Positions 3,001 through 23,227 of a stretch of 64,000 bases of DNA are shown here, one piece after another. This stretch comes from Mansonella perstans (taxonomy: Eukaryota; Nematoda; Chromadorea; Rhabditida; Onchocercidae). Where the stretch lies: NCBI GenBank assembly GCA_037074765.1, contig JBAMDO010000179.1:1-64000 (forward strand). Direction: 5' to 3'. Under the pieces are notes generated by a model. It was given only the letters and a program-made list of their open reading frames with translations, ran no database searches and was not told where the DNA came from. The position numbers and the translations under genes are program-made. Numbering within the stretch: position 1 is the stretch's first letter; each line of letters begins with the position of its first letter.

Positions 3001-6000
3001 AGTTGTCATTATCATCGATTTATCCTATCAATAAATCACATTGCATACTTTGGTTGTTGTCTTTGTTGTAAAATAAGCAGTGTATTGTTAACGATAAATG
3101 TAAAGGAAAAAAAAAAAAGAAAGTGAAAAGAAGTTTTTATTTGAAAGCTTTCAACTTTTTCAACAGCATTCTCCTTTAACACTTCATTTCATTTGTTCCT
3201 ATTATCCTGTAGAGTGAAACCTAATTATATCCTGTGTGTGGTCAAGCCTAATTATGAAAAAGTTGTTAATCATTATCATCATCATCAGGATAATAATTGA
3301 TGCATTGATGCATTGTAATTTTGAGTTTTAATTTTAAATTGATATTTCTATTCCTTTCTCTCTCTCTCTCTCTCTCTCTTCCTCTCTTTGTTTTTCTTAA
3401 ATTTTATTCATCATTTTGTGTTTTTTTTACACAAACACATATTTATATTCTTACTTTCTTCTTGTTTTTTTTTTTTTTTTAAATAATATATTTATTCCTT
3501 CATTACATTTTTTTTTCATTTAATTACTTCCATCCTTTTGAATAGACTGAAATAAGAATATAATTTTTCTTTATCTTTCATTTCATATCTCTCACACACT
3601 CTCTCTCTTCATTTATCTCCCTCTTTGTTCATTTCTCTCTCTCTAGTATGTTCCAAAAATGATGTTTAATGAAGAGAAAAAAAATGAATAAATGAGAAAT
3701 TGGGACAATCATTTTGACTAAATTACCTTTTTGCTCTCTTATTTTTTGTTGCTTCTTTTATTCTTAGTTCTAATTTTCATTTCATTTATTGTTTCATTGT
3801 AAAATTTCAAATAATGCGAGTTTTTTTTGTTTTTTCCAAGTTTTATTAATGGAAATGTGAAAGGAAAAGGATGAAATAAATTAATAATTTAGCACAATTT
3901 AACTTTGAATGAATTTAAGAGAGCAAAGAAATTTGTATAAATATAAACTTATTCAATTTAAACAAAATAATAATTGAATATATTGTTTATAAAAGTTTGA
4001 AATAATTTTTAATTCTTTTTTTTTTTTACTTTAGGATTTAGCTGAATTAGATTCAACGATTCTTAGTACACCAACAACAGTAGTAGCAGCAGCAACAGCA
4101 GAAACGGCAGCAACAACAGAAGTAGCAATAGCAGAAGCTGGAGGAACTCATAGTGTTTTAACATCGTGTGACAACGATCAAATACATTTGACAACTGGTC
4201 AGGACGAAGTATCAATTGGTGGAATAGGTGGTGGATTACTTTCGGTGAATCCTCCATTAATTGATGCAACAATTGAGTCAACATCATCATTCTTGGATCA
4301 GGGTGAATTTGAATTACCACCACCAATGAGTGAATTAAGCAGTGCTATATCTGATGCTGCTGCATCCAGAAATACATCAGTAAGTGTTTTCATTTCATTT
4401 CAATTTACTTCATTCACTTTTGATATTTATATTCATATCAATTTCATATATATTTTAATTTCATACTTTTTTTCCTTTTTCATTTTCTCAACAACATTAT
4501 AACATTTATTGATAAGAAGAATGTTATTTGTAATAAGTATGCAATTAAATAAATCTTTTTATAATTCTCTCCAATAATTAATTAAATTATCTACTAAATT
4601 TATTTCAGTTTTAGATAATTTAGTTTGTTAGTTTAAAAAAAAGGTTAATTTTAGATTATGCATTTCACAGTTTTTTTTTTTAATTTTTATCATCTCATGA
4701 TTTTTAGTGGAATTATTTTTAAATAAATTTATTTTTTTTTTTATTGGAAATCGTTTTTTGTTCATTCATCTACTCTAACTTTTATTTTCTGAAATATTTT
4801 TCTTTTCACAATCTAAAATAGTAGTATTATGTTGAAAATATTAGAAGTATCATTTTTAAATTAAATAATCTTTTCATCAATTACTAGCTAATCAGTGACA
4901 ATTATCTCCAGAGCTGTTTTCTAAAAGTTAAATAATAAAATTTTCGAAGCCTATTGAAACTTTTTTTTAAACCTAATTTTTAGCAATAGTTTTAATATAG
5001 AAGCATTGTGAAATGTACTTACATACTTACCTAAAATTATGAGTAAATTTTAACTAAGTACATTGTATTTTGATTTTTAACCATTTTTTTTTGTACTGTA
5101 ACCATTTTTTTTTGTAAATGTATTCTAATCTAATTGAATGCAGTACGAAAAAATAACACTGTAGCGATTTTTACTTTTTTTTTCTCTTAAAAAATTATAT
5201 TCAAATTTATTCTTACATATATAATTGATGACTGATGACATTAGTGTTGTTAAAATAAAAGGATGAAAAAGCAAAAACAAACTACTGCTGATTTAATAGA
5301 TTGAATTGACAAAAAAGCATTAACATCTTAATTGTTCTGATAACGTTACAATTAAATCATTAATAATGATGATTGATGATCATTGATGATCACTGGTGAC
5401 TTTTTCTTTCTAGCTCAAATTTTTAATTTTCAACTTTTTTTATTTCATTTAAGATTTAAAATGAAGATGAAATGAAAAATGTGCAGCAAATTAATTGATT
5501 GCTTCATTCATCATCATTATCATCGATCGTTGAATTCAGACTTGTTTCAGTTGTAATGAGAAATTCAAAAATTTCGCTCTACCCATTTAAATTATCTTAG
5601 CTGGGTAATTTTTTTATGAATTAATTTCAGATTGAGAAACTTTCTTCTTTGACTTAATCTAGTATATTTTGGTGTACTTGATGATATATTTGTTTAACTT
5701 TTTAGAATTAGGTTTATGATAGTGAAAATATTGTAGAAATGAATTAATAGCGTGGAAATGAGCTAATTTTTGATAAATTACTTTGTTATAATCCAATTGG
5801 AGAGCTGAAAAATTGGATCAAAAATAGCTAAATGGTGACAGTGGTGTAATTATTTCAGTTATTCATGAAATTTATCAGCGATCTTACACTACAACCACCA
5901 TCATCACTTACAGTTACTCTTCACAATGACATGATGTCATTTATTGATCTTTCCATCTTTTAGTTTTAAATACTATTGAAAAAAAATATGAAAATTTAAT

Positions 6001-9000
6001 TAAGGATGGATTTTGTGAAAGATTATAATGGACACTAGACTGCGCTAAATTGCTAACTGAAATGATGTAATTTTTATGTTGCTATATATTTTTATCTAAA
6101 CTTGAAAACATTACTTTAACGCAAATAAAATTCATTGAATTCATTTTCAGACTCAAAAAGATCGAATTATGCCTGTGTTCATTAGCATATGGTTGTATAG
6201 TGGGTAAATTGAATCAACTACTGTAAAAAAGGAAAGAGAATGGGCAAGCAAGAGAGAGAGAGAAAATTCTATGAGAATTTTTTGAATTATTCTGAATTAT
6301 CTTCTTGCATATTTAGCATTCCCATAAATAAATATGATGAAATTGTTGGAGTCAAAAATTTTTATTAAATTATTTACAATTGGTGAAGAATAATTAGAAT
6401 AGAAGAGAATAATAAGTTATAATGGAAAGTGAATAATTTTAGGGTACATAGTAAAATGGGCTTGCATAATTTGCACAATAAATAAGAGAAAATTGGGAAG
6501 CAAAGGAAAAAGTTTTTGCAGAAGAAGAATGTTTTGCTATCTAAAAATTCCTTTTAGCAAAGGCTGTTTATTAAAATCATTCCTTCCAAATGAAATATTA
6601 TTTTAGAATTGCTTAAATATGCAACAAATTTTTCTTTGTTCTGTTTTTTTCCATTCATATTTTTTCTTATGATTATTTAATTTTTTCATATTTTGCAAAA
6701 ATTTGTTAAAATATAAAATTTGAAATTTGCAAAAGAAAAATATTTTTATTGGAACAATATAGCAGTGGTATTATTTGAATATTAATTTGACAGTAAATAT
6801 TTATAACTTCATTATAAAATAAAATCATTTTAATATTTCAATAGAATAATTATTTTTTACTTCATCCTTCCTCATTCTCTGTTTTATTCAAAAATTTTCA
6901 ATCATTTAATAGAAAAATATTTTAATATCTTCTGCTCAGTATTGTATTATTATTTAAATATTAATTATTTATGTAAATTTATTAATTCAAATAAATAATT
7001 GAATCATTTAAATGTTTTTGCTTTTTTTTGTCGGAAAATTTAATTCATTGTTGAAAAAGAAAAAGTATATGTGTAAATGATTTATAATTGACATTAAATT
7101 AAAAAGTTTTAGATGCTTTAGTATTATATTTCTTTATGCTGTAAATCTTTCAAAGCGGTTTGCTTTTAAAGCGGTTTGCTTTTATCGTTTTAATTAATGA
7201 TTGTAAAATGACGGGATGTGTTTTAAAAGAAATGAGTTATAGAGTTACAAAGAGAGAGAGAGAGAGAGGGAGGGGGAGAGAGGGTGAGAGAGATAAGATA
7301 ATTGTGGAAGTGTGGGAAAAAATGAAATATTCTCATTAGTTTTGTGAATTATATACAATTAATTTATTTTTCAAAAATTGTTATTTTTAATCATTAATTA
7401 AATAAAACTTTAAATATAACAGAGAAAGAATGATTGAAATTAAAATAAATAGTAATTGTACAGTTGTTTTTGTCGATTTTTTTTTTGTTTTGTTTTTCTT
7501 TTACAGCAAAAGTAAAAGAGGATGATGATGAGAGATAAAGAGGAAGAGAGAGAGGAAAAGAAAAGTAATAAAATTGAACAGTTCTTTGTTACTTAGAGAG
7601 AAAAAGTAGTAGTAATAAATGTTGTAGTGATAAGATGGCGTAAATACTTGACTTCTTTTTCTTATTATTTATTATTACTGTTATTACTCTTCTTTCCTTT
7701 TTCTTTCATTCTTTTTTTTTCAAAGATATTTTCTCTTTCTTTCTTTCTTTCTTTCTTTTCTTTTTTCTCTCTCTCTCTCTCTCTAAATGATATGACATTT
7801 AAGAGAAGAAATAAGGTTGCAAATAGAAGAGAGAAAGAGGAAAATAAAAAATGATAATTGAAAAATTTTTCTATTCGTTTTTTTTTTTTCAAACTTTTAA
7901 CGAAATTATCAGTTATAATTTGAATAAATGAAAAGAAAGCAATGAAAAAAGAGCAAGAATTATTGCTGAAATGACATTAAAGTTTTATTTATTCTTTTAC
8001 TTTATGTAATTTAAAAAAAATAGAAATTTTTTCCTTTTGTTACAAATTAAAATTTTTTCTCTTTTTACAAATTTGTTTGAAACAGAAATTTAAAATAGAA
8101 AGTTTCAATGGGAGCAAATGCAATGTGGTTTCTTATTTATGTTCATTTTTTTTCTTTGTCCGAAAATCTTTTGAAGAAAATATGATAGAATTAAATAAAA
8201 TTCATTTTTCAAATTTTGAAAGTTTTTTTCTATCGTTCACTTTTTCCTTATAATTAATTTATTTGAATATATATTTAGTACATTTGATTTGAGAATGACA
8301 ATTGTTTATTGACTTTTTTTTTTTAATTAAGTTATAATATAATATATTTTAGCGTATTTTATATGTGATATTATTTCAAAACAGTTATTTTGGATTTTTT
8401 TTTTAGCCTAAAAATTTTAATATCTACGTAAATTTCAAAAAATTATTTAACTGATTTTCAAATGTTAAATTGTTTACAGATGGAAGAACAACGTACAGAC
8501 GATGCAAACGACGGATTAGTTGCTTGTACTGATGGATCAGAAGATCAAAATGGTGCTTCAGAAAAGGAAGAAAAAAATCCTCAGGATATTGCAAGGCAAA
8601 AGCGACAGTTCGTATTCTTTTTTTTTTTTTTTGAATTAATTAGTTATTAACTTTAGTAAGTAAAATTGTTGTGAAATTATTTAATGATTTTAAGATTCTG
8701 ATTGTCGTTTTTTGGATGATAATTGTTATTGATTATAACTGTCATTTATTAATTATTGTTGTTGCTTAGGACTGAAATTTCGATGACTAATAAGATTACG
8801 ATTAAATATTTACTGATATTCTTGAAAAAAATTCACATTAATTTTTAATTTGAGATATGTGTTGATGGAATTAGTCGATACAGAACGAGATTATGTGAAA
8901 GATCTGAGTTCAGTGGTAGATGGATATATGGCAAATTTGCAAACGATGGAATTGCCGGAGGATTTGGTTGGCAAAGATAAAATCATTTTTGCAAATATCG

Positions 9001-12000
9001 CTCAGATTCTTGATTTTCACAAAACGTAATTTATTAATTTATATTTAGTTATTTTTACGTACTAATTAATTTCATTGATTACTTGATTCATTATCATCAT
9101 TTCAAGTCTTTTAGCGAGGATAATTTACAGTTATTAACAAAAAATTTATTTTTACTTTTCAGATTATTTTTAAAAGAAATTGAAAAGTGCCTTGAAAACT
9201 ATGAAGCTGCGGGTAATGCTTTTGTTAAATATGTAAGTGTATTATTTTCTTTCTTTTTTTTTGCGCACTAAATTTTCAATTTATGTAATCGCATATATAA
9301 AAATATTAATAATATGGAAGATGATGAATTAATATAACATAGATTTATTATAGTTCATCTTGTATTATTCAATATCTTTTTGACTTCAAAATTTCTTTTA
9401 TTTGAATACTCTTCCACATAAGCAATTATTGTCATTTCTTCACTTGGTATACTTCTTTTATTTCACTAATTATTGCTTTAAGTTTAAATTATATTAATTA
9501 TTGCTTTTTTAATATATTTAAGCATCAATTATTCAAATTTTTATCGTAATAAAATATACAGCAGAGTAATGAATGGAAAGTGTAACTTTTGATTAGATCA
9601 CATTTGAAAATTTCTGGTCGAGATGAATCTGTGCATGCTTTCATATATTCAAATTTTTGAATGATTTGAAACTCTCATCTCATTAGGCATAATAAACTGA
9701 TTTGTTGTTTGCAGGAACGAAGGCTACATACATATTATGTGAAATATTGTCAGAATAAGCCAAAATCAGATTTTCTGATGGCACAGGATGATTTTGAGGA
9801 GGTGCATTTTTTTATTTTCATCTCATTACTTTATATCGAATCAACTTTATTGTTTTATTATCTATTAAGTAATGATTTTATCAGTTCTTTTTTCTCCGCC
9901 ATTATTTTAAATATTCAATTTCACTGATGTATATGATGTATGTCATTTTTAAGTTTTACTTAATTATGGTCTTATTTTTTTTGCTAAATGATTGACTGTA
10001 GCTGTCGTTTCTTTATGTTTGAAAATTTTTGAAGATATTTTTTGGCGTGCTTACACCTCAGTCGATTTTAATCATACTTAAAACAGTCTGAAAGTGTTTA
10101 CTTGTTGATTTATATGTTTCATCCGTATTTTTTTATTCATTAAGCCATGTCTTATTGCAATTAAAAAGATATTTAACAATTAAAATTTTAGTTTTTTGCC
10201 GAAACAAAGCTGAAATTGGGTCATAAGATAGCATTATGTGATCTCTTGATCAAGCCGGTACAGCGTATAATGAAATATCAGTTACTGTTAAAAGATATTT
10301 TGAAGTATACGGAAAGAGCGGGTGATCAAGTGGATATCTTGGAAAAAGCTCTTCAGGTTTATTTATTATTTATTTTGGACAAGATTGTCGTTTGAATAGT
10401 TCAAATGGTGGTTTTCTTTTAACTTAAGAATATTTTTGATCCAGCAATTAATCATTGACATTAAGAATTTTCTTCTTCTTATCCGAAACTAGTTTAACTC
10501 AGGGATTGTTAGAAAATAAAAGTGTTATGATATCATTACAGTAATGTGCAGCATTATTTCGACTTACATATGACTATGACTAAATAAGAGCCATGAATTT
10601 TGCTATTTAGGTGATGCATGTTGTACCAGAAGCATGCGACCATATGATGCAAGTTGGCCGACTGCAAAATTTTGATGGAAATTTAAATGCTCAAGGAAAG
10701 TTGATATATCAGGTTATCATCTTAAAAATCATTAATATACATAATTAGATGAGTAATATAGCGCAAAACATTATCTTTTGATAAATCTATGTAACTTTGA
10801 ACTATCAATTTACTTTTATACAACAATGTGCTGTATAAATTTTAATTTAAATCTGCAAGAATTTCAGGGAACAGTGGCAATCTCAGATAATACTCCATCA
10901 CAACCTTTCAAAGGAAAAGATAGGCGAATATTTTTATTTGAGCAATCAGCAATCATTGCTGACTGTATTTTGCCAAAGAAAGAATTTGCCAATCCAACAT
11001 ATATTTTCAAAAGTCAAATTATGGTTAATAAGGTAATTTATGTTAATTTTGCATATATAACTTTAAGTATTTAATTTGACTCAAACTTACTGTCCAAATC
11101 AATGATTGTATAAGATATGTTGTAAAATATAACAGTATAATTCTTTGATTCTGACTAAGAAATTGTGATAATAAAATTTTTTGCTTTTAATTCGAAGTAT
11201 TATTTATTCACTTTCATTCTAAACTTTTTCTAAATAATAATTCTAGATTTTTTCCCTCTGTCCCTTTCTCCTATTCCTTTTTCCTCTCTCTTTCTCTCGC
11301 AATAACCATAGTGTTTAATGTATCAGCAATTGGAAGAAAATCATTATAGTATTAAATAGGCAACAATCGGAATTCAATAAATGTTGATTTCGTACATATG
11401 ATGAGTTAAAATGAATTAAATGAGAGTAAAGAAATGCCATTTAAATGATTGTATTCTGCCGTATATAATCGATATAGTATTTAATATTACTAAATATGAA
11501 TTTTAAGCAGTTAATTGATAGGTTAATAACATAACTTATGTTTAGTAATATTTTACGAATTAGAACATAAAATGTATAAAATAAAAGATTGTTCTTTTTC
11601 CGCAATTATTGTATCGTACTGTTGTCAATCGTATGTTTGATACTGCTATCATATTGATAGATATATCACCTATTTGTTAATAGTTCGACAAATTTCTTAA
11701 GATGAAAATTGAAATTCTTGATGTTGAAGTTGAAAGTCAAAAATATAACACTTTCAAAAAGAAGCAGTGATGTAAAAAAAATTGTAAATTATGTTTCTAA
11801 AAAAAATGGAATTATGAAGAAGTAATTGATTTTTTTTTTTTTTGAAAGCAGTAATTCATGTTGATAATATTACTTACGATAATAGAGATGAGCAAGTTTG
11901 TTTCACTCAAGTTCTTTGCAAAACATTATTTAAAATATGTTTTATAAATTTCATGAGGTACCAAATAAATGATAATGAATTAAACACAAAAATAGAAATA

Positions 12001-13124
12001 TTCTGTTTCTACGTTTCAGCTCTCCCCTTGAATGATATGGCTTTTTTTTTTTGCTTAATCCAAGAAGTTAATTATGCGATATAGTAACGGTAGTTGGAAG
12101 AGAGAATAAATTAATTTTAAATTTATAAATTTTTTCTTTCCAAAAATACCTTTCGAAAAAAAACATCTTTAAATTTTTAAATAATTGGGATTTTTTCATA
12201 TAATGAATGAAATTCATTTTAATTCATTGCAAACTTTGCTTTTTCGAGAAATTTCTTTGTTTCCAGCATAAATTATCAGTTGGAATAATTTTAGATGGTA
12301 TTAGAAGCAAATATTCCTGATGAACCGTTACGTTTCATCCTGAAGAGTAATGATCCGACACAACCGAATGGATTCTTAGCACAAGCTAATACAATAGAAG
12401 AAAAAAATGAATGGATTTCGAAAATAAACAGTCAGTTGGATCAGCAGAAAACCTTTCTTGCAGCTCTGGTAGATCCCAAACGTTATCAAAATCAGCTTGC
12501 TGGAAATGTCAATTCATTATCATTGTAAGGATTTTTTTCTTTTTTTTTCGCTTTTTCTTTTTTCATTAACTTTTTTTTCTCTTTCAATAAATGGAAGTGG
12601 AAAAAAAAGGATCTGCTAATTATTGTAAAGTCAAATTCCTATCCAGTAATTAATTTTTCAGTATAATTTTGCAAAAACATAATTTGTTTTTTTCTTCTGC
12701 TGCTTTTGAACGTAATCAGTTTCTTGTCCTGTATTTCAATTTGTATAAAGCTGGTAGTTTTGGTTGTTCCGATGAATTATCTTTGGTATTTCTTGATAAT
12801 TATCTAATGATAATTATGTATTCATAATGATATATATAATCGGCACTGTTTTGTCGCATAAAATTTTCTGTTTTTTTTTTAATATTTTCTTTTGAGCTGT
12901 AATTAATTGACTTTTAATATTTCAGGGATGAAACGGATAAAAAGAAGACATTATTCCCTCGATTAACGGGTAAAAGTAAAGAAAGTAATCACAATTCTTC
13001 AGGTGCTTCATCATCAATGCAGCAAAATTCTAGCACTCCAGCAGCACCATTAACAAAGAGTAATTCATCGTCATCAAAATCGTCGAAGTTATTTGGTTTT
13101 GGGAAAAAAGTAAACAGCAAGTGA
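11..13124 (+). CDS. unc-73: UNC-73/Trio-family RhoGEF, second GEF module (DH2-PH2), 5' partial, short C-terminal isoform
   Basis: Guanine nucleotide exchange factor for Rho-type GTPases, acting in cytoskeletal and axon-guidance signalling. Exons: 11-185, 4035-4379, 8480-8607, 8855-9025, 9163-9232, 9715-9801, 10192-10356, 10611-10712, 10868-11032, 12295-12524, 12926-13124; all junction phases agree. The first two exons encode a Ser/Thr/Ala-rich linker containing ELPPPM. The DH domain starts at [16 protein letters not shown] and contains the hallmark helix [19 protein letters not shown] (exon 10192-10356). The PH domain follows (RRIFLFEQ in 10868-11032; [15 protein letters not shown] in 12295-12524). 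The last exon is Ser-rich and stops at 13122-13124 after a basic GKKVNSK tail. Bases 1-10 look like a splice acceptor, so the Sec14, spectrin and first GEF regions should lie to the left. DH and PH order and linkers match Trio GEF2 closely; substrate GTPase is not readable from sequence. Confidence 0.9.
186..4034 (+). other. Large unc-73 intron (3.8 kb)
   Basis: AT-rich, with long T tracts (about 368-391 and 3465-3480), a TA microsatellite at about 708-727 and a CT microsatellite at about 3356-3380. Open frames in it are T-rich low-complexity translations (poly-Phe/Leu/Ser). I see no gene. Confidence 0.8.
4380..8479 (+). other. Large unc-73 intron (4.1 kb)
   Basis: AT-rich intron with a GA/AG microsatellite at about 7250-7275, a purine-rich block at about 7515-7565 and a pyrimidine-rich TTTC/CT stretch at about 7735-7785. 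An 18-bp unit containing AAAGCGGTTTGCTTTT is tandemly duplicated at about 7153-7187. No coding exon was recognised. Confidence 0.75.
13110..13124 (+). other. In-exon alternative 5' splice site versus stop codon (isoform switch)
   Basis: Inside the terminal Ser-rich exon of the GEF, GGGAAAAAA is followed by GTAAAC at 13110, a usable donor in phase 0. If it is not used, translation reads five more codons and stops at 13124. If it is used, exon 12926-13109 joins in frame to 17709, adding the SH3-Ig-FnIII-kinase tail. The phase match is direct; isoform use is inferred. Confidence 0.65.
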
Positions 13125-16100
13125 ACTAAGTCGAACATAGCAGTAGATATAAATTAAAGTAGTGATGCTGGGGAAAAAAAGAAATAGTGAATATTTTGCC
13201 ATAAATTATTAAAGTTATATTTCATTGACTTTACTGGTATCCTGTATATATATATATACAGATATAAATATATATGTATATTTCTTCTTAGTTACTTGCT
13301 TGCCTTTAATTTACATTTCCATCATTTTGTTAAATCAATCAAAACTTTGTTGATTTTGTGAATTTTTTTTTGACAAGAAATTTTTCTCCATTCTTGCTCT
13401 ATCAATCTTGCAATTCTGTAAAAAATTTTCAACAAAATGATTGGCTTTTTTGAGACAAAAAATCTTTTTGATTGAAGAGACACTAGAGATTTGTCATTTG
13501 AGACGAGAAAGGTTTTTTTTGGGGGAATTGCAACAAAAACTGGGAATGATGGGGAGAATGGGTAGTTCTTATTTTTTAAGCATTTTGGAAGATATTTTTT
13601 TGAGGGAAAATTTTTTTACTACTCATTTATCCATTGTACGATATTTAAGAAGAGCTGTTATAGTTAGAAAATTTTTTTAGGCCGTATGACAAAATTTCTT
13701 GGATTTATTTATTTTTTTGATTTTAGCAGCTTCGTTTTTTTTTCTTTGTAATTTATTTTGATTTACTGGTTTCAATTTATTCGTATATTTTTCGAATAAA
13801 TTTTCTTGTTATATGGTATGTTTATGAATGAATTGATTCTGTTGTATATGTGTAGCAAACAATGAACGCAATTTGAATGCCAACAAAATTTGTTTTGGAA
13901 GATTATTATCTAAAATGCTTTGAAATTTGTTTAAAATTTTATTTCTGAAAATTTGCTTTTGCTTACTTATGTATATGAATGTGTAAAAATGCAATGCAAT
14001 GCAGCTAGTAGCAGAACTTTTTATTTATTTATTGAAAAAGTTAATTGATTATTACTGGTTTTAAGTTAATTAAAAATCTCAGATTCGAGTTTTACATTTC
14101 GAAGTTAAAAAAACTGGTGTTCTTTTTTTTCCAACTATTAATATTTTTTTACCTTCCTTCCTTCTTTATCACATGTATCATTTCAATATATATTCAAAAT
14201 TATTGCTATTTTTAATTTTTTTTTGACTTTTCTCTTTTTGGTAAATTTCGACGAAGTTTCTATCTTTTATAAAATTATTTTAATAACAAATTTTTTTCGA
14301 ACTCATTTTTATTTATATTCTCTAGTTAGTTAAATTTGTATTTTTAATTTAAAATTATTTGATACAAAAGAAGAGGAGCTGAAAAAAAAGAGTAGCAAAC
14401 AATTCTGTGTACATATATATGATTATTATTTGTTGTTTGTTTTTAAAAAAAATTAAAAATTTCTTGTTTATTTTCTTTTTTTTGTTTATTCTATTCGACA
14501 CAAGAGCTTATATTACTATTCTTTAAAGAAAAATGAAAATTAAATTTCATTCATCAAAGAGTTGCTGCTTGCTCATTATGAAATGAGGATGGATGCAGGG
14601 GAAAAAAATGCAGTAATTTTCAAAATATAGCTATAATTATAATTTAGTTCATAAAATCTCCACTTAACAGACATTTTTTTTTTAATTTATTTTTTATAGT
14701 GTATTTTTTGTTATAGATTAGAATTTTTAAATTTTCTTAAATGATTTTAATTTTTTTTGCTAATAAATAAATAATTTTTGTCAATGATCTTTCCAAAGAC
14801 AAAGAAGGAGCGGGGAAAAAAAATTCTGTAAATTTCTATAAAAAAAATTGTTTTTTACAATTTATCAAAATTTGCAACAATTGATAATAAATAAAATTGT
14901 GATTTGGGACTGCTTTTATATATTGTACATTGTCATACGGCTTACTTTATGCAAATATTAATAATGTCAATTAATTAATCTTCTTTCTTTTCTTCTCATT
15001 AATTTTTTTTTTTGCCAAATTTGGTTTTGTTTCAAGTGTGATGAATGTATTTATGATGTGGAAATGAGATTCATTCGTTTTCAGTTTTTTTTTTTTTCTT
15101 TTTTTTTTTTCTCATTAATAATGCATGCTTGTTTAAGAGAGGTATATAAAATATCGAACGATTGATTGATTAATTAATTAATGAAGTTATCATAAATTAT
15201 TTCATGTAAACATGAAAATGAAAGGAGTGAGGTTTAAAATGGAGGAAATATGTTTTTTATCAATTTTGTCATTTGTCATCTCATCGTTCCAATTCATCGA
15301 TCATTTCTTTCTTCTTTTCTTTCTTTAAATTTCATTAAATTATTGTCTTTTACTTCAAAAATTTGATTGAAATTAATTGCATTACATATTGTATACATAT
15401 ATCTTTTCTGGTTTCGGATTTTTTTTTTTTTTTACTTTTTTCATTGTATGTTTTATAAAATTACAAAAAACAAATGAAATTTTCAGAAAAAATTTTAAAA
15501 TGTAATAGTGCTTTAAAGTACTTTGATATTTATTGGTAAAAAAATTTTTTTTTCTTTCATTCATTCATCGTTAGGTGCCTATAGTCATTTTTCAAATCTT
15601 TTCTTTTCTTTCTGATCACTTTCATTGCCTCCTATTCTTACCCTCTCTTTTCATACTTCTCCTCTTGACTTTTTTTTTTTCAATTTTAAAAAATGAAAAT
15701 TTCTTTAAACAAAAAATTGATTGACAAGATTTTTCCTTTTTTCTTTGATCTCTGATCTTTCACTCTTGCTTTTTTACAATTTATATTTTTACAGCCGGAA
15801 TGATAATAAACATTGCTTTCTGAATGCGTTCAGAAATTATTTGTTTAATTACACTATAATTAAACTGAAACACAAGATGGTACATATGCATTTCGTGGTA
15901 TTTAATTAAATCATTAATCCAATAAGTTTTATTACCGATAAATTTTATAAGAAATAAATCAAAAAAAAAAAATATTTATTGTAAATGAATCCGGTTTGTG
16001 GTTTCTGACATAATCAATGTAATGCAAGCCAAATTTCCAGTATTGCACTATGTGAAATAAAAAAAGCAAAGAAAGAAGAAGGATGAGTGCTAAATTCGGA

Positions 16101-17708
16101 GAACATATTGAAAAATTGAAAACAGAAAATAAGTTACGGTGCTTCCAGATTGGGAACGAAATGCAAAACATATTAACATATCACTGGGAACTGAAAAGCA
16201 ATTGTTGGATGTTGTGATTGTTTTGAAAAATTTCAACTCACACAAAATATGTTATTCAATAGATTTGATAATTAATTGTTAATTGAAGATCCTTTTTTAC
16301 AAGTTTAAATCTATTTTTTTAAGTTTTTTAAATCTCTTTTTATCATTTCGATGTAGCTCTCATGTTATACGGTAATTGCATTAGATTAAAAAGATAAATA
16401 CTAGGAAGTAAATTTTAATATATTGATTGTCATATGAATCTCAAAATGGGATAGTTTGATTTTTGCATACATTGAAAATTAAAATAATAATTTTGAGATA
16501 GTTAATTAGGTGAAAAAGTAAGAGAGAGAGGGGGCGAGAAAATAAAAAACTTCAGGGAGAGAGTGAAATTTTCTTAAAACTTCAGAAAGGAAGTGAAATT
16601 CTTTAAAACTTCAAAGAGAGCGAAATTCTCTTAAAAATATTTTGCTCATTTTATTCAGGGATCATATTTGTTTCTAACAAGAATTAAAATGATTTTATTT
16701 AGTAAATGCAATGATGGAATTTTTATTAAGAAAATTTACAGAAAGTTTTTCATTTCATTGACAGTGCTATTGTTTAATTGAGAGGGAGGGCACAGAGAGA
16801 AAGAAAGACAAGCAAAAGGTTATAAATTTTAACTTTTCGACAGTTGTTCGGGAATTAGTTGTTATTGATGGAAGGATGAATGTTGACGATTTGAGTGAAT
16901 TGATTTGTCCTTCTTTTAATTTCACTCTTGCAAAAACTTTTATATATAAATCGGAAAAATATGTTAAATGATGCGAGAACGGTTAGCTTTTATTTCCGTC
17001 TAATGTTACTATTGTTGCTACGGTTTTCATTTCTTATTTCATTTCTTATTCATTTCTTATTTATTTACTTATTACTTATTAACGCTTCAAATAAATAAAT
17101 CATTACTTTATTGATTTTTATTTTTCAATTTAAGATTTAATAACAAAGAAAATTTGACCTTGTATTTAATAAACTTTACTCAAAAACAATGTATGAATGG
17201 TGAAATTTCTGGAAATTCATTTCATCATTATGTAGGAAGTAAATTAAAAATTTACTGTTTTGTATTTGTTAGTTTGACGAAAATTAGTCGATCGGACAAG
17301 CAAATAAACAATAATTCTGATAAATTTATCGATTAATGGCTATATTGAAGAAATTTCGATACAGAAATATGCATGTAACAGTTAGTATTTGTTCAGTTAT
17401 TCTGGATGCATGCGAATAAAAATGGTGGTTAATGTTGATGAAATAATTGAAACTTGACATTATGACAATCTGCTATTTATGCTTATTAGAATTCTGCTAA
17501 ATCAAATGAGTGTAGATGATACACGAGGATTTCATCTTTGATTATATGCGAAATCGAAATACTAAAATCCAATTTCTGATTTAAATCTGATTATTTGATA
17601 TTAATTAGATTGATATTATATTTATTAAACATTAATTTTTTATTGCATTAATTAATCAGTTTGTTATTACATTTAATATTGTTCTTGTTTCTTTGAATTT
17701 AATTTTAG
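13125..17708 (+). other. 3' UTR of the short isoform and 4.6-kb intron of the long isoform
   Basis: After the stop at 13124 there is a TA-rich stretch (13246-13285) and AATAAA at 13795-13800, a possible poly(A) signal for the short isoform. The rest is AT-rich with poly-T tracts (about 15415-15434) and a small tandem repeat at 16547-16637. Short open frames here (for example 13441-13680) show no family resemblance. Confidence 0.6.
16547..16637. repeat. Three-copy 29-30-bp tandem repeat
   Basis: Three imperfect copies of a unit beginning AACTTCA followed by a purine-rich core and GAAATTCTCTTAA. The ACTTC starts are at about 16549, 16579 and 16608, giving periods of 30 and 29 bp. It lies in the intron between the GEF and the kinase-tail exons. 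Confidence 0.75.
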
Positions 17709-20700
17709 GAACAACCATTGTCATGGGATGCAAGCACGAATGAAGTAAATGCTGTAATTAATTGTTCATTTAATGCCGTAAAAAAAAAGCAAATTAGTGG
17801 TCATCGAGGTGAAAAGGTGATTTATTGTTATCGTTATCTTGTTGTTATTGTTGTTGCTTGCATTAAATAATATGATCTTAGGATTTTTTCCCTTTGTCTG
17901 TGATATGCAGCAATAAATGCTTTTGGTTGTTTGGTATTTTGCAGGTGAAAATCCTAAGCATTGATAAAGAAGGATATGCTGAAGTCGAGAAAGAAGATGG
18001 AATGAAAGGTTTTATTCCGACTTATTTCCTCGATCTAAATACAGTACCAGGTGATAATTTCGCTCAACAAATAAGGTTAGTACTAAAGAGTTTGAACTTG
18101 CAGACTTTTAAGTTTACGAAATCTGAAATTGACCATCACAAGGCATGTAACAAAGAAGTAGCAAATAACAAACATAACAAACAACAAACAAACAACTTAA
18201 TTATTTAACTTAATATAGCTAACCAATAATTAATCACTTTATCAAACAAATGCAAAATTATTCAACCTAGCTATAAAGGACTAATCGTCGATATTATTAA
18301 TTCTTTAGCTGGAAGTTCTAGTGAAACAAATTTAAAATTGAAGCTTTCTTCAGGTTTAATAAATTTATTAACATTATTATTACAGCCCATATAATTAAGC
18401 TTTCTCTGTTTTTTGCTTTTGAATTGGGCCATTTTATAAATTTTCATCTTAAATTGAACTTTTATAAATCATTTTTCAAATGACCGAAGAAAAAATTGAT
18501 TGATTGTCAGGCTTTTTGAACTATAATACATTTGAAGTATAGCACTGCAAGTAGCGTTAGCATTTATTTGAAGCACAAAAAAAAAAGATGAAAAGAAATT
18601 AAAATTTAAATCAATTACCTTCGTATTTCAGATATCGTCGAAAATGGTATCATTTAGTGGATTCTAGTCATTCAGTAATTTTCAACGATAATCCAACCAA
18701 TTTATTGAGCAATATTTCATACCTAACTAATTTACTATCATTTCTACCTGTGGAGAAGCAATCACTTCCACTAAATTCATCTAAACAACCAATTTGTATT
18801 GAACCTTTGCAAGATAAGAGAATAAAACTGGGTGACGAAATATGTTTAATGTGTAAATTTCTCTCGGAAGAAACACCTAAAATTACTTGGCATGGTCCAG
18901 TGATTACAGCTAAACGTCAATATGAAATCACGGTAAGTGCAAAGTTTTTTTTCTTTCCACTTTCTGGATTTGAATCAATTTTTCGGAAAGATCCTCAGAG
19001 AGAGTGTAACTTGAATTTTCATCATCGGACAAAAATAGTTACTGTAAGAGTTAATACTTTTACTAGAATCTGCTAAATCCTGAGATTTTTCGGAGTATTA
19101 TTTTCATTAATAATAAATTTAAATTTATTGTCACACCATTATTGCCAATTATCAAACATATGACAAATCACTTTTCAAGATTAAGTTTTATTAATTATTC
19201 ATCTATAATTATTACATTTAACAAAATTTCTCTTTTTTTCTTGCAGACAAATGAGGAAGGTTATTCGATATTAACATTTAAAAAATGTATCGAAGAAGAT
19301 AGTGGACAATATTGGGTTCAAGCTGAGAATATCTATGGCAAATGTCATACTATGGCTTGGATTACGATAATCGTACCACCTGGTAGTACTCATTTTACAA
19401 TATGTAAAGCAATTAGTCGAAATAGTGTATTGCTGCAGTGGAAAAATGCACGAAATGGTAATTCGAAAAATGTCTACTATGTCGTAGAATATAAATGGAA
19501 AGGTGAAATTTTCTTGACAATTTTTTTCTTTTTTTATAATCAATATTATTAGAATTTGGAATTAATTTATTAATTATTTCTTAATTCTTGTAATTTTTTA
19601 ATTTACATTTAATTTTTCATTGACAGTTTTTTTCCCATTTTTTGGCTCAAATTTGTCGTATTATTTTTCAATATAATCCGTCAATATTTCACTATCAGAA
19701 TATAATCACAATACTGTATTTCACTATTAGTTACAGTACGATATTATTTCTTAGTCAATGTATAATACGATAGTGCTTCATCTATCAGTATGTAATCCAG
19801 GAATATTCTGCTATCAATATATAATCCGATAACTGTCACCATGCGTGTGTAACTTGAATCACTGGAACACAGAAATATTTTATACTCTTACGTGAGCTTG
19901 AAAAGATGAAAGGTCTTTAAAGTAGTAATAACGTCCTTTCTTTCGAATATTTTCCACTTATCTTTTCGAATATTTTTTTACTATATCTTTATCTTTCCAT
20001 ATCGTTATGATGATGCTAATCATACTAGTGTCAATTAGATCAAGTTTTGCATATCTTTCAAGTGTACGATTATATATCAGTTAAACAAAATTGCTATAAA
20101 TGATTGGTTTATTTTCGGTTTTGCAGATATGATGGATTATAAAGTAGCAATGGAAGGTATCATTGGTACATCAACTGTTATCACAGATCTCAAAACTACA
20201 TTCTATTCTTTTCGTATCTACGCTTTTAACGAGTATTTCAAGGGTAAAATTGGACCAACAGCTGATGTTGATTTAAATTTGGCTCCTTCGCAATCTCTAT
20301 CACCAGTTACTTTCATTGGTGACAGCAGTGTTAAGGTTGACACTTCATATGTCATTACTTTTCTTCTCATTCTTGCTTATCTATAATTACTTATTCGTTT
20401 ACTTACTCTTAACAATTAAAATGAAGCAATATTTAAGATTGATTTCATCTTTGAAAGTATTTCACCTGTTACTTTAACTTTTAAATCGAACTCTTAATTT
20501 TAATTTTTTTTAATTTAACTTAACTTTTAATTTCAACTTTATCAAACTTCTAAATTTGATGCATATAAGTTAGCTATTGTTCGGAAAAAACAATTTCTTA
20601 ATTTTTCCTCGAAATAAAATTTTAATCATTCCTAGATGGAATATATTGATGAAGCAACATATTCAAAAATTTATACCATTGCTCGTGTAATACACAAGGG

Positions 20701-23227
20701 AAAATTCGTTTACGTGAAAGAAGTAATACGCAAAAGTGACAAGAAACAGTATGCAGCAAAATGTTTCATGCGTCAATTTACGCGAACTGAAAATGAATGG
20801 GAAGGTATGGAACGTGAAATTAGCATTATGCGCTGTATACGACATCGTAATATTGTTACTTATCATGGAGCTGTTAAAATGGACGATCAATTAATCATGA
20901 TTATGCAATGGTAAGATTTGGAAGCATAGCTGTAAAATCAATTTTAATTTTCTAGTAAAGTTTATTACCAATAATCAGAAGATTTCAAACATTCAAATAT
21001 TTGATAATTTTTATTAAAATATTTAATCATTGTTGTTTGATCAAACATCAGTTTTGTTCTTCTGTTACTTGATAGTAAAAACAATAAAGTTATCTGATCT
21101 GTGTAAACAATCCAGAAATAAACTGGATTTGTGATGTATTTATTTTCATATGTTTCTTCCGTGATCAATGAATATTTTAAGGCTAACTGGTCCAGATCTA
21201 TTAGATTATATAATAAATTTGGGATATATTTCTGAAGCATTAATTCAACGATTCTGTAAAGATCTTTTATTAGCACTGGAGTATCTTCATTCCATACAAG
21301 TTGCTCACCTTGCTATTCAGGTAATGCTCTTTTTTCCTTTTTTTGTCACAAATAAAATTTCAAAATACCAGATTTTTTTCTATTTTGAAAAATAAATCTT
21401 AAAAAATTTTCTTTTCTCCTTTTCTTTTTGTTTTAATTTTGATTATTTTTTTCTACTTATAGCCGGAGAATTTGTTAATGCATATTACTAATGTTGTACG
21501 ATTGATGCTCATCGATTTTGGTTCCAGTCGGTGTTGTAATCAGGAAGCAATTGTTTGGCATTATGGTTCAGTTGATTTTGCTTCACCGGAACAAATTTCG
21601 CATCATGAAGTTACAATAAAATCAGATATATGGTAATTAACCAAATAATTAATTACTAGTTTTACATATGTAAATTTGACATTTTCTATTCCAAATATCA
21701 TGATTATATATATATATATATATTATAAATTTCATTTTGAAATATAAAAAGATTAAGTAATTAATTAATAGCTGTGTTATAACTTCATTTTTTATCCAAT
21801 GATTGTTATTCAAAATTAATTCGTATTCTTTTAATAATATTTACTTGTTTTAATCAATATTTTGTCCCTTCAAAATCTTTCGAACTTTTTCTATTTTCCA
21901 GCAGCTCACATAATTACTCTATCATGTACAAAAAATTTACTAAATGTCAATTTTTTATTTTTTAAAATTTTTGAAATAAATTTCAATTTTTGAATTTTTC
22001 ACTTTCATTTCACCGAAATTGTATATTTTACTAATTTATAGGAGTTTCGGAATTTTATTATATACATTAGCAACGGGTAAAATACCATTCGATGATGAAT
22101 ATTATGAAGTGATACGGTTAAAAATCCTTTCAAACATTTCAACAGTTGACGAGATCAGAAATTATCGAATTTATTCGCCGGAAATTGTTACACTTTTGAA
22201 ATCTGTAATTGTTGCAGATGCCAGGCAATGATTTTATTTTTTTTGTTTTTATTCCTTCTAATTATACTTTTACACATATCACAGTCTAGTACATTTTCTT
22301 TTTTAACTTAGTTTTTCTTGCTTTTAATCTTAATTTTTTTTATTTTTAATTTTTTTCCAATCTTAAGCACTTTAAAAATGAGTTAATAACATTGAAAAGA
22401 GAGGGAGAAGAGAGAGGAGAAGAAAGCAAATTGGAAGAGAAGAGAAAATGAATGCAATACATATTGACAGGTGACAGGTGTGTGCATGTAAAAAAAGAAC
22501 TGCTGATTTGTAATTTTTTGTGAGAATTTAAAATGATTACTAATGTGCCGATTTTAAATTAAAAAAATTCACCGTTGAAAAATTGAATTCAGAATTTAAT
22601 TGCATTAATGTTCAATTAATGAATGAAAGATTTTAAAGTTATTTCTTCTAGCAGTTACTATTATATATTTCAATTTGCAGAACTCGATTATCAGCAACAG
22701 AATGCTTGAAAAGCGAGTGGATGCAAAATGTTTGTTGTCAAATTTAAAGATTGAAATTAAAATTTATTTGAATTAAAAATAGTTTATTAAGTTCGGAATT
22801 CAATTCAAATACTAAGGTTGATTGATTAATTATGTTAGCGTCAGAAAAAAAAACGGGAAAACAATAAAATGATAAATTCTCGGTATAACTCCCTAGTGGT
22901 TATCAATATTGATTTCTAATGAGAATATTTATTGAGTCGACAATTAATTCAAATCTTAATTTAAATTAAAATCAAAGATAAATTTAAAAAAAAAAACGGA
23001 CGAACCAAATTAATTTTTTATGATTCAATTTTTAAGTTTACCACTTATTAAAAAGTTCAAGTTTTTCCTTTTTTTCTTAAAAACTTATTAAATCTTTTTT
23101 ATCTTTTTTTTCTTTTTTTTTTTTAATCTTTCTAAATTACTTATAGCAAAGAGGCGAGGAACTTTTCCTCGTTGACTATTTGGAAGATTATAAGGAACGA
23201 CGAAGGAAGCTATTTCAAACAAATTAG
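17709..23227 (+). CDS. unc-73: UNC-73/Trio C-terminal extension: SH3-like, Ig, FnIII and Trio-type (pseudo)kinase
   Basis: Exons 17709-17816, 17945-18075, 18632-18932, 19247-19502, 20127-20335, 20636-20910, 21182-21320, 21463-21632, 22042-22224, 22681-22729, 23147-23227. The first is phase 0 and joins exactly to an in-exon donor after 13109, so I read this as the long isoform of the upstream GEF. An SH3-like fold ends in GFIPTYFLDL. An Ig domain follows (LMCKF ... EEDSGQYWVQAEN; the second Ig Cys is Trp), then FnIII (VYYVVEYKW ... FYSFRIYAFNEY). The kinase keeps the VAIK-type Lys (YAAKCF), the helix-C Glu (MEREISIM), DFG (LIDFGSS) and SPE, but the catalytic loop reads HLAIQPENL: Asp is Ala. 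The tail EDYKERRRKLF matches the Trio/Kalirin tail containing ERRK. The donor at 22225 is GC. A separate gene with its own promoter is possible but less likely. Confidence 0.85.
19671..19840. repeat. Diverged minisatellite, about 29-bp period, about six units
   Basis: Recurring elements ATAATCCGATA and TTTCACTATCAG alternate through the intron 19503-20126. Units are degenerate, so the period is approximate (28-32 bp). It sits between the two FnIII exons of unc-73. Confidence 0.65.

What the first reader, a model, noticed from the sequence alone, without database searches (positions are those of the whole stretch)
20636..23227. Trio-type kinase domain in a nematode UNC-73, predicted to be a pseudokinase
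The kinase frame keeps the ATP-anchoring Lys (YAAKCF), helix-C Glu, DFG and SPE, but the catalytic loop reads HLAIQPENL: the proton-accepting Asp is Ala and the following Lys is Gln. The glycine loop (HKGKFVYV) is also degraded. The loop spans a junction (21320/21463), but both exon ends are fixed by phase. As I recall, published C. elegans UNC-73 and Drosophila Trio lack a kinase, so a retained but catalytically altered domain would be notable. It may serve as a nucleotide-binding or scaffolding domain.
Basis: partly seen in the sequence, partly recalled or inferred. Interest (0 to 1): 0.8.

Follow-up and report, generated by a model that had tools for sequence, protein, structure and literature searches.

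The report
Filarial worm Trio carries dead kinase
Filarial worms keep a protein-kinase domain at the end of the cell-guidance protein UNC-73/Trio, a domain reported missing from the laboratory worm and fly, but each filarial copy compared here lacks one of the two acidic residues that a kinase needs to work, so it has probably become a binding platform.

Summary
Six exons (20636-23227) spell a 298-aa kinase domain behind the GEF2(DH-PH)-SH3-Ig-Fn3 part of a filarial UNC-73/Trio; the GEF1/spectrin half lies on another contig. The catalytic loop reads HLAIQ, and no alternative junction tried restores HLDxK. It is no one-off: with ten related database proteins a clade-wide pattern appears. Of 10 filarial species (this one included), 8 have Ala for the catalytic-loop Asp and keep DFG; Onchocerca volvulus and Dirofilaria immitis keep HLDIK but read NFG. 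Each lacks exactly one of the two catalytic Asps. Structural residues (VAIK Lys, helix-C Glu, PEN Asn, DFG Phe, SPE Glu, helix-F Asp) are invariant in 11 of 11 spirurid rows. The C-lobe is about as conserved as the SH3 and Ig domains. Best reading: a selected pseudokinase, probably a scaffold or regulatory domain, inactivated by two routes in different lineages (or lost once and the loop regained). A 2012 paper says that fly and worm orthologs lack the kinase. Function, expression and dN/dS are untested here. New variant of a known kind (Trio kinase turned pseudokinase).

The parts
8855..11032 (+). Exons C-H (with introns between): second RhoGEF (DH2) domain and start of PH2
   Evidence: Pfam RhoGEF 5.9e-39, SOS1_NGEF_PH 8.8e-23; exon ends
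12295..12524 (+). Exon I: end of PH2
12926..13109 (+). Exon J; reads on into an in-frame stop at 13122-13124, so a short isoform ending here is possible
17709..18075 (+). Exons K-L: SH3 domain before the Ig
   Evidence: Pfam SH3_2 8.9e-06
18632..20335 (+). Exons M-O: Ig (I-set) and fibronectin III domains
   Evidence: Pfam I-set 3.5e-11, fn3 1.2e-06
20636..20910 (+). Exon P: kinase N-lobe; Gly loop remnant, VAIK Lys codon 20759-20761, helix-C Glu codon 20816-20818
21182..21320 (+). Exon Q: hinge to catalytic loop; CAC CTT GCT ATT CAG (HLAIQ) at 21306-21320
21463..21632 (+). Exon R: PEN, DFG (21514-21522), SPE, start of helix F
22042..22224 (+). Exon S: rest of the C-lobe; GC-AG intron follows
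22681..22729 (+). Exon T: end of the C-lobe (RLSATECLKSEWMQN)
23147..23227 (+). Exon U: last exon, conserved tail ELFLVDYLEDYKERRRK and stop
17506..17511 (+). Possible alternative first exon ATGAGT followed by GTAGAT (phase 0 into exon K); unproven
   Evidence: read by eye (the script did not list it, its minimum being three codons); models of four other filariae begin with a similar Met-Ser stretch

Best explanation
The window holds the 3' half of a filarial unc-73/Trio gene that has kept the family's C-terminal kinase domain. The fold is maintained by selection, but the domain is unlikely to be a normal protein kinase: here the catalytic-loop Asp is Ala and the following Lys is Gln. Shown: the domain, its place behind GEF2-SH3-Ig-Fn3, the missing residues, the same or an alternative catalytic loss in all 10 filarial species compared, and invariance of the structural residues. 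Inferred: it works as a pseudokinase, a nucleotide-sensing or nucleotide-free binding surface that recruits partners to, or folds back on, the neighbouring Ig-Fn3/GEF2 unit, much as titin kinase and invertebrate obscurin PK1 serve as scaffolds. The invariant stretches LIQRFCKDLL (helix E) and RLKILSN (helix G region), and the conserved C-tail, are the likeliest working surfaces (a guess).
For: Gene model and domain order; the rest of the Trio architecture on C162. Motifs across 11 spirurid rows: HxD Asp is Ala in 8 of 10 filarial rows and Asp in 2 of 10, and those 2 of 10 have NFG; the Thelazia model lacks the loop and reads DFR. VAIK Lys, helix-C Glu, PEN Asn, DFG Phe, SPE Glu and helix-F Asp are invariant in 11 of 11. 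Mean pairwise identity among filarial rows: C-lobe 0.789 (45 pairs) against SH3 0.785 and Ig 0.797 (28 pairs each) and Fn3 0.743 (21 pairs). Reading frame: with 60 replacements (298 residues times the terminal branch of 0.200 per column in the kinase-only tree) neutral drift would give about 6 nonsense changes, and 0.3% of 1000 runs gave none. Three non-nematode Trio/kalirin kinases that I picked read HLDIKPEN. An AlphaFold model of the Wuchereria row matches DAPK-family kinases with TM 0.78-0.89 by target among the 50 hits shown; the two best hits by E-value are the titin and twitchin kinase regions, whose TM by target is only 0.44-0.45 because flanking domains are included.
Against: No activity, binding, expression or dN/dS data. 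The kinase evolves much faster than the GEF (0.731 against 0.927 identity to Dirofilaria) and the N-lobe is the least conserved folded part (0.708). The AlphaFold model is of moderate quality (mean pLDDT 67.8; residues 488-504 and 509-517, around DFG, under 50). Relatives' sequences are gene predictions, some truncated or mis-spliced (Elaeophora, Setaria, Thelazia).
Confidence: 0.75

Rival explanations
1. The domain is an evolutionary remnant under relaxed constraint, on its way out as in C. elegans and Drosophila; it has no function of its own.
For: Catalytic residues drift by lineage; kinase identity is far below that of the GEF; worm and fly orthologs have no kinase (PMC3541206, passage); Elaeophora and Setaria models end early.
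Against: The frame is open through six exons here, while only 0.3% of neutral runs stayed free of nonsense changes (indels not modelled, which is conservative); structural residues invariant in 11 of 11 rows; C-lobe about as conserved as SH3 and Ig. The Setaria model ends exactly at the exon S border with its GC donor and the Elaeophora model close to it, so annotation is a likely cause.
Confidence: 0.15
2. The domain is still a working kinase by an unusual mechanism: the HLA forms without the usual base, the NFG forms without the usual magnesium ligand (CASK is such a case, recalled).
For: VAIK Lys, helix-C Glu and PEN Asn are kept in 11 of 11 rows; DFG in 8 of 10 filarial rows, so nucleotide binding is possible.
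Against: Two different catalytic residues are lost in different lineages, and the Lys after the Asp varies (Q 6, R 1, E 1, K 2 of 10 rows), as expected if catalysis is not selected.
Confidence: 0.07
3. Sequencing, assembly or splicing artefact hides a normal HLDxK loop.
For: None found; only that the motif lies close to a junction.
Against: HLAIQ occurs in six species, this one included; the codons are internal to exon Q; 0 of 14 open alternative junctions gives an Asp.
Confidence: 0.01

Closest known systems
Vertebrate and lophotrochozoan Trio/Kalirin kinase domain (pike TRIO P0127, Mercenaria kalirin P0135, Lingula kalirin P0172)
   Same: Kinase at the C-terminus of a Trio-type protein, 28-29% identity to the window domain, and a similar RR[KR] tail
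   Different: Those three keep HLDIKPEN (Lingula reads DLG for DFG); the filarial domain lacks one catalytic Asp
C. elegans UNC-73 / Drosophila Trio
   Same: Orthologous GEF protein; C. elegans also has the Ig-Fn pair (PMC2703648, passage)
   Different: They lack the kinase domain altogether (PMC3541206, passage)
Invertebrate obscurin/UNC-89 PK1 pseudokinase
   Same: Kinase in an Ig/Fn3-rich protein, predicted or shown inactive, with a scaffolding role (PMC10129394, passages)
   Different: Different protein: SH3-DH-PH order (PMC10118190, abstract start), long Ig arrays, two kinases; the C. elegans layout in detail is recalled
Titin kinase
   Same: CAMK-type fold; described as an inactive pseudokinase scaffold (PMC4042850, title and start of abstract); best fold hit by E-value
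   Different: Giant muscle filament with no GEF domains (recalled)

Membership tests
Trio/Kalirin/UNC-73 | Two RhoGEF DH-PH units | tested here: met
   DH2-PH2 in window; DH1-PH1 pieces on contig C162; that the two contigs join is inferred
Trio/Kalirin/UNC-73 | CRAL-TRIO and spectrin repeats at the front | tested here: met
   CRAL_TRIO_2 (1e-4, 23.1 bits against a cut-off of 23) and Spectrin (2.9e-8) in concatenated C162 pieces
Trio/Kalirin/UNC-73 | SH3-Ig-Fn3 then kinase at the C-terminus | tested here: met
Obscurin/UNC-89 | SH3-DH-PH front, Ig arrays, two kinases | tested here: not met
   DH-PH precedes SH3; one Ig, one Fn3, one kinase in the model
Active protein kinase | VAIK Lys and helix-C Glu | tested here: met
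   11 of 11 rows
Active protein kinase | Catalytic-loop Asp (HxD) and following Lys | tested here: not met
   HLAIQ here; Asp absent in 8 of 10 filarial rows
Active protein kinase | DFG Asp | tested here: met
   Met in this species; not met in Onchocerca and Dirofilaria
Pseudokinase | Kinase fold lacking at least one catalytic motif | tested here: met
   Pfam Pkinase full length, fold match of the Wuchereria row, motif loss
Pseudokinase | No phosphotransfer activity | not testable with these tools
   needs purified protein

The most novel reading that the evidence does not exclude
The two Asps are mutually exclusive in filarial Trio: every copy compared has one and only one. On the published species tree (Setaria outside, then Onchocerca/Dirofilaria, then the rest) this needs either the same double change (Asp to Ala and Lys to Gln) twice, or a regain of HLDIK in the Onchocerca/Dirofilaria line coupled to loss of the DFG Asp. 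Selection may act on the charge of a metal-free pocket that serves as a conformational switch for the GEF2 unit, a use of the domain that I found in no listed paper on Trio.
Probability: 0.15. Interest if true: 0.75.

Novelty: new variant of a known kind. Interest (0 to 1): 0.6.

Why it matters
The role of the Trio/Kalirin kinase domain is poorly known, and the standard invertebrate models cannot help because they lack it (PMC3541206 says so, passage). Filarial worms supply a natural experiment: ten species in which the fold is kept while catalytic residues have been lost in two different ways. That argues that at least part of the domain's value is non-catalytic, and points to surfaces to test. 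It also warns that database labels such as 'CAMK/DAPK/DAPK protein kinase' (Loa loa) or 'protein kinase domain-containing protein' in filarial records should not be read as an active kinase.

Tried and rejected
Obscurin/UNC-89 was considered because it also has Ig, Fn3 and kinase domains; rejected on domain order. Alternative splicing to restore the loop: 38 donor/acceptor pairs, 14 open, none with an Asp. A degraded glycine loop as evidence for inactivity: dropped, because the clam and brachiopod kalirins share the loss of the first Gly. Event count: the gene tree without the catalytic columns gives the published order with weak support; the kinase-only tree instead puts Setaria with the other HLA species (77/85), and a single HLA clade is not rejected on the longer alignment (p-AU 0.233), so one loss versus two, or a regain, is open. 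Thelazia cannot decide: its model lacks just the six loop residues at the Q/R junction, which may be a splice-prediction fault. dN/dS could not be computed without relatives' coding DNA. Rows left out of motif counts: Thelazia at the loop (gap); Setaria and Elaeophora at the helix-I Arg, where their models end. P0248 and P0250 (Onchocerca flexuosa, Gongylonema) are fragments without kinase and were not counted; P0247 and P0249 are not nematode UNC-73 and were not counted. Species: a place in filarial clade ONC5 near Loa is suggested (81/80, not starred); a Mansonella-like worm is a guess from the 75.7 Mb assembly size, and the passages seen list no genome of that exact size. Literature: searches listed no paper on a filarial UNC-73 or Trio pseudokinase, judged from titles and abstract starts, in an open-licence library only; the other two searches were for phylogeny and genomes. 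The Loa loa genome and kinome paper (Desjardins 2013) was not read, nor was the Toxocara paper that mentions unc-73 (PMC11702694, listing only). The 2005 UNC-73 isoform paper is not held.
Full report
What is there. The + strand of the window carries the 3' half of a nematode unc-73/Trio gene. A 21-exon model (A 4035-4379 to U 23147-23227) joins in phase; its introns are GT-AG, except that exon S ends in a GC donor. Pfam reads RhoGEF (5.9e-39), SOS1_NGEF_PH (8.8e-23), SH3_2 (8.9e-06), I-set and fn3, then Pkinase over its full profile. The order DH-PH-SH3-Ig-Fn3-kinase is that of Trio/Kalirin and not of obscurin/UNC-89, whose SH3 precedes DH-PH. C162 also holds CRAL-TRIO (just at its cut-off) and spectrin pieces. 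The window begins at base 1 of contig C179, so the gene is broken by a contig end; that both halves are one gene is inferred.

The kinase domain. The catalytic loop is HLAIQPEN, and the Ala and Gln codons (GCT 21312-21314, CAG 21318-21320) lie within exon Q. Trying the donor/acceptor pairs in the neighbourhood (38 pairs, 14 open through DFG) gave no loop with an Asp. The glycine loop has lost its first Gly, but so have the clam and brachiopod kalirins, so this is no sign of inactivity.

Relatives. Three protein searches returned ten kinase-bearing UNC-73/Trio proteins from spirurid nematodes: Wuchereria bancrofti, Onchocerca volvulus, Dirofilaria immitis, Thelazia callipaeda, Acanthocheilonema viteae, Cercopithifilaria johnstoni, Litomosoides sigmodontis, Setaria digitata, Loa loa and Elaeophora elaphi. 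With the window this makes 11 rows. HLAIQ with DFG: the window, Acanthocheilonema, Cercopithifilaria, Litomosoides, Setaria and Elaeophora. HLAIR with DFG: Wuchereria. HLAIE with DFG: Loa. HLDIK with NFG: Onchocerca and Dirofilaria. The Thelazia model skips the six loop residues just at the exon junction and reads DFR. So 10 of 10 filarial rows lack exactly one of the two catalytic aspartates. Three non-nematode Trio/kalirin kinases that I picked (pike, clam, brachiopod) read HLDIKPEN; the brachiopod one reads DLG in place of DFG.

Is the fold under selection? VAIK Lys, helix-C Glu, PEN Asn, DFG Phe, SPE Glu, and helix-F Asp and Gly are invariant in 11 of 11 rows. Mean pairwise identity among filarial rows is 0.789 for the C-lobe (45 pairs) and 0.818 for the tail (21), against 0.785 for SH3 (28), 0.797 for Ig (28), 0.743 for Fn3 (21), 0.708 for the N-lobe (45) and 0.570 for the linker before the kinase (45). 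The sets of rows differ between domains, because two models hold little but the kinase. The GEF is far more conserved: DH2 0.927 against kinase 0.731, window to Dirofilaria. A neutral simulation with 60 replacements, the number implied by the terminal branch of 0.200 in the kinase-only tree, gave a mean of 5.96 nonsense changes, and none in 0.3% of 1000 runs; with 30 replacements none in 5.2%; indels were not modelled. This argues against plain decay but is no dN/dS. Among stretches of five or more residues invariant in the rows that have them, the longest are LIQRFCKDLL and RLKILSN.

Structure. AlphaFold on the Wuchereria protein with 12 other rows gave mean pLDDT 67.8, with residues 488-504 and 509-517, around DFG, under 50. 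Foldseek's best two hits by E-value are the titin and twitchin kinase regions (TM by target 0.44-0.45, flanking domains included); DAPK and CaMKII kinases follow, the DAPK-family ones with TM by target of 0.78-0.89. The fold is a kinase; the pocket cannot be judged from this model. The window's own protein was not modelled.

How many losses? Published trees (PMC4654488 and PMC12693587, passages) put Setaria outside the clade ONC3 (Onchocerca, Dirofilaria) plus ONC4 plus ONC5. On that tree, with an HLDIK ancestor, either the same two changes occurred in Setaria and in ONC4+5, or they occurred once and were reversed in ONC3, where the DFG Asp was lost. The gene's own tree is too weak to choose: it recovers the published order with low support, the kinase part alone groups Setaria with the other HLA species (77/85), and a single HLA clade is not rejected, p-AU 0.233. 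Either way, ONC3 and the rest reached the catalytically deficient state by different residues.

Most likely working. The domain probably still folds, may still bind nucleotide (Lys, Glu and PEN Asn kept in all 11 rows; DFG Asp in 8 of 10 filarial rows) and has given up phosphotransfer. By analogy with titin kinase (PMC4042850, title and abstract start) and obscurin PK1 (PMC10129394, passages), a scaffold or regulatory role next to Ig-Fn3 and GEF2 is the best guess; that step is inference. It may be made both as the tail of UNC-73 and as a separate SH3-Ig-Fn3-pseudokinase of about 600 residues: four relatives' models begin with a similar Met-Ser stretch, the window has an ATGAGT with a GT after it at 17506, the intron before exon K is 4.6 kb, and exon J can read into a stop. 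None of this is proven without RNA.

Compared with what is known. [quoted passage not shown] Eight literature searches listed no paper on a filarial Trio kinase or pseudokinase, judged from titles and abstract starts. The library holds open-licence papers only, and the Loa loa kinome paper was not read. The public Loa record is named 'CAMK/DAPK/DAPK protein kinase'. I file the finding as a new variant of a known kind: a Trio-family kinase domain turned pseudokinase across the filarial nematodes compared.

Noticed in passing
window 22224/22681: Exon S ends in a GC donor (AG|GCAATG); the Setaria model stops exactly there and the Elaeophora model close by, so this intron may confuse gene prediction.
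   Followed up: partly
window 13109-17709: A 4.6 kb intron between GEF2 and the SH3-Ig-Fn3-pseudokinase part, with an in-frame stop just past exon J and a possible alternative start ATGAGT|GTAGAT at 17506: possible split into two proteins.
   Followed up: partly
window 1-~200 and contig C162 of the same assembly: The unc-73 gene is broken between contig C162 (CRAL-TRIO, spectrin, GEF1, minus strand) and C179, whose base 1 is the start of the window.
   Followed up: partly
window about 25.1-26.75 kb, minus strand: WD40-repeat pieces (Pfam WD40 1.1e-10 on one) suggest a WD40 gene convergent to unc-73.
   Followed up: no
Thelazia protein P0005: The model lacks six catalytic-loop residues precisely at the exon junction and reads DFR for DFG; either a third kind of loss or a splice-prediction fault.
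   Followed up: no
Lingula kalirin P0172: Reads DLG in place of DFG in an otherwise canonical catalytic loop.
   Followed up: no
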